Notes under the pieces: generated by a model | Seen by the model: the letters and a program-made list of their open reading frames with translations, nothing else | Told to the model about the DNA's origin: nothing | The model's database searches: none | Part shown: in pieces, positions 13,433 to 16,416 of the stretch | How positions within the stretch are numbered: the first letter of the stretch is position 1 | Layout: every line of letters begins with the position of its first letter | Program-made: the position numbers and the translations under genes | From: Tuwongella immobilis | Lineage (GTDB): Bacteria > Planctomycetota > Planctomycetia > Gemmatales > Gemmataceae | Reading direction: 5' to 3' | NCBI RefSeq assembly: GCF_901538355.1 | Contig: NZ_LR593887.1 | Coordinates: 3,820,920-3,884,919, forward strand | DNA length: 64,000 nucleotides

Positions 13433-13462
13433 GAGAGTCAGTGATCGCAATCACTGACTCTC
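13433..13462 (-). terminator. Rho-independent terminator of the tRNA-Gln transcript
   Basis: A perfect 13-bp stem (13433-13445 with 13450-13462) with a CGCA tetraloop. On the minus strand it is followed by TTCGTTTTTCAC. It lies four bases downstream of the last tRNA-Gln, so it should end the rex/tRNA transcript. Confidence 0.88.
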
Positions 13463-13466
13463 GAAG

Positions 13467-13537
13467 CTACCCGACTAGGATTCGAACCTAGACGAAGTGG
13501 ACCAAAACCACTTGTGCTACCGTTACACTATCGGGTA
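13467..13537 (-). tRNA. tRNA-Gln (anticodon UUG), distal copy
   Basis: The minus strand folds into a complete cloverleaf of 71 bases: acceptor TACCCGA/TCGGGTA, D-stem GTGT/GCAC, anticodon stem AGTGG/CCACT with loop TTTTGGT (anticodon TTG), T-stem CTAGG/CCTAG with loop TTCGAAT, discriminator G. CCA is not encoded. It is base-for-base identical to the copy at 13587-13657, from which it is separated by 49 bases. Confidence 0.97.
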
Positions 13538-13586: not shown

Positions 13587-13657
13587 CTACCCGACTAGGA
13601 TTCGAACCTAGACGAAGTGGACCAAAACCACTTGTGCTACCGTTACACTATCGGGTA
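13587..13657 (-). tRNA. tRNA-Gln (anticodon UUG), proximal copy overlapping rex
   Basis: Identical to the copy at 13467-13537 with the same cloverleaf and UUG anticodon. Its 5' fifteen bases (13643-13657) are also the last codons and stop codon of rex, so the first transcribed unit downstream of rex is this tRNA. RNase P cleavage of a joint transcript would remove the rex 3' end. CCA is not encoded. Confidence 0.97.
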
Positions 13658-14386
13658 AATATCTGCTAATGTATTCTCGTCTTCACCGAGGTGAACTCGG
13701 AAGGCAAGCTGTTCAAGTTGGATGGTGAAGTCCACCGAGACCAACTGAATGTTGCTAGGCATTTTGAGAACCGTGGGAGCAAAGTTCAGCACACCGCGAA
13801 TTCCCGTGCTAGCGAGGCGATCCACAATTCCCTGAGCAGCATTAGCAGGCACTGTCAGGATTGCAAGTCGGATTGCCTCTGTTTCTATAGTAGCAGGCAT
13901 TTCCTGGAGCGACAAGACCTTTTGGCCATCTACTTCCGAGCCAATTTTTTGCGTGTCGCTGTCGAATAAGCCAACAATTTCGAAGCCGCGTGCGTGAAAT
14001 CCGCGGTATCGCAGCAATGCCCGAGCGAGGTTGCCAATCCCGATGAGAGCGGCTCGCCACGTCCGGTCGATCCCCAGCGATTCACGGATCGCACGAATGA
14101 GATCAACGATGGTATAACCAATCCCACGCTTGCCAAGACTTCCCAATTGTGAAAGATCTTTTCGCACCTGAGAATCGGTAATTCCCAAGGTTTCTGCGAG
14201 ATCGCTACTCGAAATTTTCGTCTGACCTTCTCGCAGTCGGCTTTCGAGGCAGCGAAGATACAGACTGAGTCGCCCGGCGGTTGCGCGGGAGATCCGTTCT
14301 TCACGATGTTCGGGCGGTTCGTTCACCGAAGGCCCCTTCTCGATTGCTGCATGGAAAACCGTCTCCGCGGAACCGACGTAACGCAT
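13643..14386 (-). CDS. rex: Redox-sensing transcriptional repressor Rex
   Basis: A 247-residue Rex-family repressor that senses the NADH/NAD+ ratio and leaves its operators when NADH is high. The winged-helix domain covers about residues 34-105 (ISRATAGRLSLYLRCLE, then ISSSDLAETLGITDSQVRKDLSQLG, then GKRGIGY). The Rossmann domain begins with ALIGIGNLARAL (113-124) and includes GLFDSD and RLAILTVPA; GVLNFAP is a typical late motif. ATG 14386 comes one base after the stop of the DUF1573 gene, so translation is probably coupled; a GTG at 14326 behind GAAGGGG is an alternative that would remove 20 non-conserved residues. The final codons and TAA stop lie inside the tRNA-Gln gene. No clear Rex operator was found nearby. 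Confidence 0.93.
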   Translation of the reverse strand: MRYVGSAETVFHAAIEKGPSVNEPPEHREERISRATAGRLSLYLRCLESRLREGQTKISSSDLAETLGITDSQVRKDLSQLGSLGKRGIGYTIVDLIRAIRESLGIDRTWRAALIGIGNLARALLRYRGFHARGFEIVGLFDSDTQKIGSEVDGQKVLSLQEMPATIETEAIRLAILTVPANAAQGIVDRLASTGIRGVLNFAPTVLKMPSNIQLVSVDFTIQLEQLAFRVHLGEDENTLADIYPIV

Positions 14387-14387
14387 T

Positions 14388-15371
14388 TTAGGGCAAAATC
14401 CATCGGACTGGAATCCGATGTTCTTCGGGTGCTGCCATTCCCTCGGCAGGCTGAAGCATCAAAATCACCTCAGCATTCCCCATCGCCTGTTCGACCTTTG
14501 TTGGATCGAACCGAACACGAATCGGAAACACTGGAAACGCACCATTGGCTGCCGTCACCGAGATTCCTGGTTGATCGCAGCGTGCGGAGATCAGCCGGAT
14601 CGGCTGCCCATCCCCTCGACGCACCTGGAACAACGCCGATTGCATCTCAGTCGATTTCGCGGGTTGGAATACCCATTGTTCCGGCGTATGTTGAACCGTC
14701 TGCGGTCGCTCCTGGGGACGAATCTCAATCGGAAAGCTGAGATTGGGTTGCTGCGGATCATCGGTCGCAAATCCCAGATCCATCCAGCCGGTCGGAACCT
14801 TCGCGCCTGGTTTCACCCGCAGACTGACCATGCATTGATTCCCCCCCGACGCCAACTGAACTTCAAGCCCGTCGGGAATTTTTGTCGGTCGCAGCCGAAG
14901 CTTCTCACGATCGGCCACACCTTCGACGCGAATGGTATGCCAGCGATCGCTGATCGGAATGCTTAACGAGGTTGGCACCACCGTCAGCCGCCGCTCGATG
15001 AGGCCCGTCAGTTCAATTCGTGTCTCGGGGAGATCTTGTTGTGATTCTACTGATTTTGGCGTGAGGGCGATTGTCCAACGATGTCCGCCTACCGTCTGGG
15101 CCAGCGTTCCAACGGTGACGGTAAGGGTTGCGGTGGCATTCGGCTCCAGTTTTTGGGCCGACAGCGTCCAGCGTTGGCAGCCACAACTCGGTCGCACCGA
15201 TGCAATTTCAAGCACCGCTGGTGATGTATTTCGAATTTGGAAGGTTTTGACAATTGGGGTGCCCGCTAAAATCTTGCCACAGTCCGAATGGGTCGGCGTG
15301 ACCATCAGCGGAGCGATGCTTGCCCCATCCGTAGGGGCAAGCAACAACAATGGTAAGATGAAGTGTGTCAT
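14388..15371 (-). CDS. DUF1573 domain protein, exported
   Basis: A 327-residue protein with a short hydrophobic signal (about 1-17) and the DUF1573 Ig-like domain (about 25-110), recognised by the pattern FQIRNTSPAVLEIASVRPSCGCQ with CGC at residues 63-65. The rest is beta-rich and resembles further ASH/Ig-like repeats. The molecular role of the family is unknown; members are exported in Bacteroidetes and planctomycetes. It lies between a PP2C phosphatase gene (42-bp gap) and rex (one-base gap) on the same strand, so the three are probably one operon. Confidence 0.82.
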   Translation of the reverse strand: MTHFILPLLLLAPTDGASIAPLMVTPTHSDCGKILAGTPIVKTFQIRNTSPAVLEIASVRPSCGCQRWTLSAQKLEPNATATLTVTVGTLAQTVGGHRWTIALTPKSVESQQDLPETRIELTGLIERRLTVVPTSLSIPISDRWHTIRVEGVADREKLRLRPTKIPDGLEVQLASGGNQCMVSLRVKPGAKVPTGWMDLGFATDDPQQPNLSFPIEIRPQERPQTVQHTPEQWVFQPAKSTEMQSALFQVRRGDGQPIRLISARCDQPGISVTAANGAFPVFPIRVRFDPTKVEQAMGNAEVILMLQPAEGMAAPEEHRIPVRWILP

Positions 15372-15413: not shown

Positions 15414-16178
15414 TTAATTCGCTTCGACCGCTTCGATCACAATGCAGGAGACATTATCACGCGAGTTGCAATCCAGCGCCAATTGGCCCATCGTATCGGC
15501 ACACTCTTGAACATCCGGGTACGATTGCAGATGGTTCAGCAGCTTGTCATCGCTGACAACGCCGGTCAATCCGTCCGAACAGAGCAAGAAGCGATCGCCG
15601 TGCTGCAAGCGCACTTCGATGACATCGGTTTCTCGGCCGGTTGTCAATTCGCGGCTGCCCAAGAATTTCCACAAAACGTTGCGGTAGCGATGCTCTTTGG
15701 CCTCTTGCGGGGAGATCGTCCCTGCTTCCACCAAGGCTTGTGCGAGCGAGTGATCGACCGTCAATTGCTTGATGGCGCGCGTTCGGGCGATGTAGGCTCG
15801 GCTGTCACCCACCCCGGCCACATAGAGTTCCCCACCGCGACGCCAGACGGCCATCACAATGGTTGTCCCCATGTTCTTCATATCTTTGTCGAGCGCACCC
15901 ATTTGCATGATTTCTTCGTTGGCCAACAGAATGCACCGACGAATGGCATCTTTGGTCATGTCGGGTGTGGCCATCGAATGCAAATGCTTGCGGAGTTCGC
16001 GGGGGATGATTTCAATGGCGCGTCGGCTGGCCACTTCGCCGTAGGCTTGGCCGCCCATGCCATCCGCCACAATGCAGACCGTCAGTTCGGGAAACTGCTT
16101 CACTTCGATGGAATCTTCGTTGTTTTCCCGGTAGTTCCCCAGCAGCGTGCATTTGCCGATATTCAGTGCAAAAGGCAT
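15414..16178 (-). CDS. PP2C-family Ser/Thr protein phosphatase
   Basis: A 254-residue PP2C (PPM) phosphatase that removes phosphate from Ser/Thr with two metal ions. Motifs: RENNED (17-22), VADGMGG (37-43), GDSRAYI, HSLAQALVEAGTIS, LLCSDGLTGVV and RDNVSCIVI, giving all the metal-binding Asp residues. The ATG at 16178 follows GAGGG; the frame extends further upstream but without homology. It would counteract Hanks kinases such as the one at 5082-7661, though no direct partner is adjacent. Confidence 0.94.
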   Translation of the reverse strand: MPFALNIGKCTLLGNYRENNEDSIEVKQFPELTVCIVADGMGGQAYGEVASRRAIEIIPRELRKHLHSMATPDMTKDAIRRCILLANEEIMQMGALDKDMKNMGTTIVMAVWRRGGELYVAGVGDSRAYIARTRAIKQLTVDHSLAQALVEAGTISPQEAKEHRYRNVLWKFLGSRELTTGRETDVIEVRLQHGDRFLLCSDGLTGVVSDDKLLNHLQSYPDVQECADTMGQLALDCNSRDNVSCIVIEAVEAN

Positions 16179-16416
16179 AGGACCCTCTCTCGTCGATCCA
16201 TATGGTAAGCAGTTCGGGGGACCTTCGCTCCGAAGGGGGAACACAACGACCAGCATGGCGATTGTGTTACTGGTGAGTATATCATCGCCGTTTCCCAATG
16301 CCAACGGTTCTCCCAAATTTCGATCGACGTAACCTGATACCGGCTCAGCCCGGATGACCTATGCAGGCGGTACCGCGCCGGGTAGACTGCTCGCATCATT
16401 TGAGGGAGGGTCTGGC

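What the first reader, a model, noticed from the sequence alone, without database searches (positions are those of the whole stretch)
13643..13657. rex stop codon lies inside a tRNA-Gln gene
The last four codons and TAA stop of rex are the first bases of the proximal tRNA-Gln(UUG). A joint transcript would be cut by RNase P, so tRNA maturation would clip the rex mRNA just before its stop codon. This could link Rex levels to tRNA processing, or produce non-stop mRNA.
Basis: seen in the sequence. Interest (0 to 1): 0.66.

Follow-up and report, generated by a model that had tools for sequence, protein, structure and literature searches.

The report
Rex gene ends inside tRNA-Gln gene
In this planctomycete the gene for the redox sensor Rex runs 15 bases into the tRNA gene behind it and borrows its stop codon from the tRNA, an extreme form of an old Rex–tRNA-Gln gene pairing rather than a proven regulatory switch.

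Summary

tRNA-Gln(UUG) lies directly behind rex, same strand, in 68 of 87 rex loci of the class outside this order, 2 of 4 in the rest of the order, 11 of 58 in the family and 5 of 40 loci elsewhere in the phylum. It is an old gene neighbourhood. Usually rex stops 7-220 nt before the tRNA. The stop lies inside the tRNA in only three of the loci examined (this genome, G034, G044), at two positions; a Rex tree needs three separate changes. The pairing is conserved; the overlap is not.

Best explanation: erosion of the spacer. Once rex loses its stop, the tRNA 5' half supplies one (UAG at nt 8-10, UAA at nt 13-15). A promoter-like site inside the rex tail (TTCACC-16-TACATT) suggests that the tRNA may also have its own start; G034 and G044 show none. 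Clipping of read-through rex transcripts by RNase P follows from the layout but is untested, and nothing supports selection for it as a regulatory link.

The parts
13643..14386 (-). rex, redox-sensing transcriptional repressor, 247 aa
   Evidence: NCBIfam and Pfam matches
13643..13657 (-). overlap: last four rex codons and TAA stop = tRNA-Gln nt 1-15
13587..13657 (-). proximal tRNA-Gln(UUG); CCA not encoded
13467..13537 (-). distal tRNA-Gln(UUG), identical copy; best upstream promoter score only 2.7
13668..13695 (-). candidate tRNA promoter inside the rex tail: TTCACC (13695-13690), 16 nt, TACATT (13673-13668)
   Evidence: score 7.3; 2.9% of 1662 coding windows score as high; a prediction only
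13673..13678 (-). GAGAAT, at the same phase and distance from the tRNA as TAGAAT (rex stop plus likely -10 box) in L135; possible trace of a lost stop
   Evidence: compared by eye; suggestive only
13433..13462 (-). intrinsic terminator after the distal tRNA
14388..15371 (-). DUF1573 gene; its TAA is 1 nt before the rex ATG
15414..16208 (-). PP2C-type phosphatase gene, first gene of the likely operon (listed ORF starts at 16316; start uncertain)

Best explanation
rex and tRNA-Gln(UUG) are an old neighbour pair in planctomycetes. In this lineage the spacer has gone: the rex reading frame runs through the former spacer (and probably through the tRNA's own promoter) and ends on a stop codon that the tRNA D-arm happens to supply. 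The tRNA is made from read-through of the PP2C-DUF1573-rex unit and probably also from a promoter inside the rex tail; one terminator closes the unit after the second tRNA. RNase P must then cut any rex-tRNA transcript before the rex stop, so such mRNA either is read before cutting or gives non-stop mRNA for tmRNA to rescue. Shown here: the overlap, the conserved pairing, the variable stop position, the D-arm stops, the terminator, the presence of a tmRNA gene. Inferred: co-transcription, the internal promoter, RNase P cutting of rex mRNA. I read the overlap as tolerated drift, not as a selected regulatory device.
For: Pairing: same-strand tRNA-Gln(UUG) within 1200 nt behind rex in 68 of 87 class loci outside the order (65 of 80, 3 of 7; one further genome contigs locus, L031, has none; L120 has it on the opposite strand), 2 of 4 order loci, 11 of 58 family loci, 5 of 40 loci elsewhere in the phylum. 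Drift: family gaps are 7, 9, 11, 11, 13, 33, 259 and 414 nt, plus three overlaps. In G034 and G044 rex ends GAT ACC CGG TAG, with TAG = tRNA nt 8-10; in this window TAA = nt 13-15. Overlap needs three changes on the Rex tree. Safety net: over 78 adjacent tRNA-Gln genes, a frame entering at nt 1 first stops at nt 13 in 36, and a frame entering at nt 2 has its first stop at nt 8, 11, 14 or 20 in 61. Promoter: the window's site scores 7.3; 2.9% of 1662 coding windows reach that, the 95th percentile of 47 rex ends without a tRNA is 5.7, and held-out real tRNA upstream regions have a median of 8.0. In L142, L165, L134, L139 and L135 the rex TAG stop is the TAG of a TAGAAT -10-like box (read by eye). 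Same habit in this genome: tRNAs sit 11-19 nt behind Pfam-confirmed genes (HscB-like, carbamoyltransferase, kinase, LigT-like, MFS, Na/H exchanger), three of them with a promoter-like site within or across the gene end. tmRNA gene present.
Against: No transcript data. G034 and G044, with the same kind of overlap, have no promoter-like site above background in the last 62 nt (scores 1.0 and 4.8), so an internal promoter is not general. The promoter result is one modest score among eleven family loci scored, and the distal copy has no good site. Drift does not explain why the pairing itself has lasted so long.
Confidence: 0.68

Rival explanations
1. Regulatory coupling: RNase P and the ribosome compete for the same transcript, so tRNA maturation clips rex to a non-stop mRNA and sets Rex level.
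For: Geometry: the cut at 13658/13657 removes four codons and the stop; no terminator or room between rex and tRNA; tmRNA gene present; overlap reached in three lineages.
Against: Nearly all relatives end rex before the tRNA, so the clipped stop is not conserved; most family genomes with rex lack the pairing (47 of 58); stop position differs (nt 8-10 or 13-15).
Confidence: 0.1
2. The tRNA is transcribed mostly from its own promoter inside the rex tail, rex read-through is minor, and the overlap has no consequence for rex.
For: TTCACC-16-TACATT in the rex tail, 2.9% of coding windows as good; relatives show TAGAAT/TACAAT boxes 10-30 nt before the tRNA (by eye); similar sites across other gene ends in this genome.
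Against: No site in G034/G044; no terminator was found that would end rex before the tRNA.
Confidence: 0.17
3. A sequencing or assembly error near the rex end creates the overlap; the true stop is TAG at 13668-13666.
For: An out-of-frame TAG lies 8 nt before the tRNA, the usual family spacing.
Against: Single-contig genome, no long homopolymer, two other genera show overlap.
Confidence: 0.05

Closest known systems
Bacterial mRNA-tRNA co-transcripts (E. coli secG-leuU; title seen only in the reference list of PMC3985628; that paper itself is not held)
   Same: A protein gene and a tRNA directly behind it, parted by RNase P
   Different: Here the stop codon itself lies inside the tRNA, so the cut would remove it; I recall no such overlap in secG-leuU
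tRNA punctuation in animal mitochondria (recalled; titles and abstract starts seen)
   Same: tRNA excision sets the 3' end of an mRNA, which may lack a complete stop
   Different: Mitochondria restore the stop by polyadenylation (recalled); no such step is known here, and only one gene is involved
Same-strand overlapping genes in bacteria (PMC2542354, search listing only)
   Same: The upstream gene runs into the downstream one on the same strand
   Different: The downstream gene is a tRNA, which must fold and be cut out

Membership tests
Rex redox repressor | N-terminal winged helix and NAD(H)-type Rossmann domain, score above model cut-off | tested here: met
   NF003993 238 bits (cut-off 217), PF06971, PF02629
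Rex redox repressor | NADH-dependent release from its operator | not testable with these tools
   none
tRNA-Gln(UUG) | cloverleaf above Rfam cut-off with UUG anticodon | tested here: met
   60 bits each; anticodon ttg
mRNA-tRNA co-transcript processed by RNase P | no terminator between gene and tRNA, terminator after the tRNA | tested here: met
mRNA-tRNA co-transcript processed by RNase P | a joint RNA and an RNase P cut detected | not testable with these tools
   no RNA data
Regulatory clipping of the rex stop | overlap kept by relatives | tested here: not met
   3 overlaps in 58 family rex loci, none confirmed in 87 class loci (L135 has an earlier in-frame TAG)

The most novel reading that the evidence does not exclude
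One transcript, two exclusive fates: a ribosome finishing rex covers the tRNA 5' half, while RNase P freeing the tRNA destroys the rex stop. Rex, an NADH sensor, would thus be set by tRNA-Gln maturation. In G034 and G044 the overlapped gene was the only tRNA-Gln(UUG) pattern match found, so the same fork would there bear on the supply of that tRNA.
Probability: 0.1. Interest if true: 0.72.

Novelty: new variant of a known kind. Interest (0 to 1): 0.42.

Why it matters
It shows how a protein gene can end on a stop codon lent by a tRNA, and gives a natural test of what a cell does when RNase P removes a stop codon. The wide rex/tRNA-Gln(UUG) pairing, for which the paper searches listed no report, is the sturdier find and asks why a redox regulator and a tRNA stay together.

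Tried and rejected
Consensus sigma-70 scan near the tRNA: nothing next to it, so I trained a model on the genome's own tRNA upstream regions (46 of 64; left out were the two window genes, the L197 array, L208 and genes with another tRNA end within 75 nt upstream).

The genome-contig scan for rex relatives gave one locus only, without the pairing. The tRNA-Gln copy count in G034/G044 rests on a pattern with up to two mismatches; it misses divergent copies (it did not report this genome's own tRNA-Gln(CUG)), so 'sole copy' is not proven.

L135 first looked like a fourth overlap (gap -16); it has an in-frame TAG earlier, so its real gap is 18 nt (counted by eye). L077/G006 carries a tRNA-Gln-like remnant behind rex that ARAGORN does not call; counted as no pairing. 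Papers: searches; none showed in its listing a rex-tRNA pairing or a bacterial stop codon inside a tRNA. I saw listings for all, passages of PMC3985628, PMC12320835 and PMC8567305, and no whole paper. That the genome is Tuwongella immobilis is recalled from its size and form, not shown by a call.

Full report
What is there. On the minus strand rex runs from 14386 to 13643 and ends ...GAT ATT TAC CCG ATA GTG TAA. tRNA-Gln(UUG) begins at the T of TAC, at 13657. A second, identical tRNA follows at 13537-13467, then a strong intrinsic terminator at 13462-13433. Upstream, the DUF1573 gene ends 1 nt before the rex ATG, and a PP2C phosphatase gene precedes it. The unit reads PP2C - DUF1573 - rex - tRNA-Gln - tRNA-Gln - terminator.

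Is it conserved? rex was found in 58 of 95 family genomes, 122 of 198 genomes drawn from the class, many of the family among them, and 71 of 294 drawn from the phylum (three of them from the class, and some only weak part matches). I took the stretch behind rex for all 58 family loci, the 4 other order loci seen, all 87 class loci outside the order, one genome contigs locus (L031), and 40 loci of the phylum outside the class, mostly the best-scoring of those listed. tRNA-Gln(UUG) follows rex on the same strand within 1200 nt in 11 of 58, 2 of 4, 68 of 87, 0 of 1 and 5 of 40. A few stretches were short (about 125 to 270 nt in L229, L136, L214, L223), so counts are lower bounds. No other tRNA type stands first behind rex on the same strand in these outputs. 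The pairing is thus old and is missing from most of this family; the tree needs seven changes for it (73 rows: 58 family and 15 chosen outside rows).

Where does rex stop? Mostly before the tRNA, at 7 to 414 nt (family) or 8 to 223 nt (class). Three family loci overlap: this one at TAA nt 13-15, G034 and G044 at TAG nt 8-10. The three do not group on the Rex tree (three changes; the window's row has a long branch, so its place is unsure). The path is visible in L021 (G043) and L029 (G042): they stop 11 nt before the tRNA, in the frame that next meets the tRNA's UAG at nt 8-10 (read by eye; L029 has one more stop in between). The tRNA 5' half is a safety net: of 78 adjacent tRNA-Gln genes a frame entering at nt 1 stops first at nt 13 in 36, and one entering at nt 2 stops first at nt 8, 11, 14 or 20 in 61.

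How is the tRNA transcribed? A two-block model trained on 46 tRNA upstream regions of this genome finds TTCACC-16-TACATT in the rex tail, 10 nt before tRNA nt 1, score 7.3. Of 1662 windows from long reading frames of the window 2.9% score as high, and for 47 rex ends without tRNA the 95th percentile is 5.7; held-out tRNA regions have a median of 8.0. The control windows overlap in part and some long frames may be non-coding, so 2.9% is rough. G034 and G044 score 1.0 and 4.8, inside the background. Class relatives with room have TAGAAT/TACAAT boxes before the tRNA, and in five loci the rex TAG is the TAG of TAGAAT (by eye). As a group, though, the relatives' best scores under this model have a median of 5.0, which 11% of coding windows reach, so the model carries over only in part. 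The window's GAG AAT ACA ... TAC CCG matches L135's TAG AAT ACG ... TAC CCG in phase and distance, which could mean that one base change removed an older stop; with one distant relative this is a hint only.

Is it special in this genome? Several tRNAs sit 11-19 nt behind real genes: tRNA-Val(UAC) behind an HscB-like gene, Ser(GGA) behind a carbamoyltransferase, Gln(CUG) behind a kinase, Arg(UCU) behind a LigT-like gene, Leu(UAG) behind an MFS gene, Phe behind a Na/H exchanger. For Ser(GGA), Leu(UAG) and Phe a promoter-like site lies within or across the gene end (scores 8.0, 7.1, 11.1); for Val, Arg and Gln(CUG) none does (0.5, -3.3, -1.9). rex is the far end of this habit.

What it most likely does. 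The overlap itself is best read as tolerated loss of the spacer. It has one forced consequence if rex is co-transcribed: RNase P cuts before the stop. The removed part (YPIV) lies outside the Rex models (matches end by residue 235), a tmRNA gene is present, and the second tRNA copy is not overlapped. So damage would be small in this genome (inference). In G034 and G044 only one tRNA-Gln(UUG) pattern match was found and it is the overlapped one, so there the overlapped gene probably works as a tRNA gene.

What is not shown: any transcript, any cut, any effect on Rex. Searches for printed reports.

Noticed in passing
G000:C1, loci L042, L198, L202, L191, L201, L037, L199: tRNA genes sit 11-38 nt behind Pfam-confirmed protein genes on the same strand; in L198 and L201 the gene's stop touches or overlaps a -10-like box.
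   Followed up: partly
L142, L165, L134, L139, L135: The rex TAG stop codon is also the TAG of a TAGAAT -10-like box of the tRNA-Gln behind it.
   Followed up: partly
L077 / L217 (G006): A degraded tRNA-Gln-like remnant lies behind rex, while an exact pattern match is elsewhere in that genome.
   Followed up: partly
L120 (G120): tRNA-Gln behind rex is on the opposite strand, as if inverted in place.
   Followed up: no
G000:C1:6682899-6683765 (L197): Dense array of mostly low-scoring tRNAs for many amino acids near the contig end, perhaps of mobile-element origin.
   Followed up: no
L209 (G000:C1:3455995-3456067): tRNA-like gene with a two-base anticodon call by ARAGORN.
   Followed up: no
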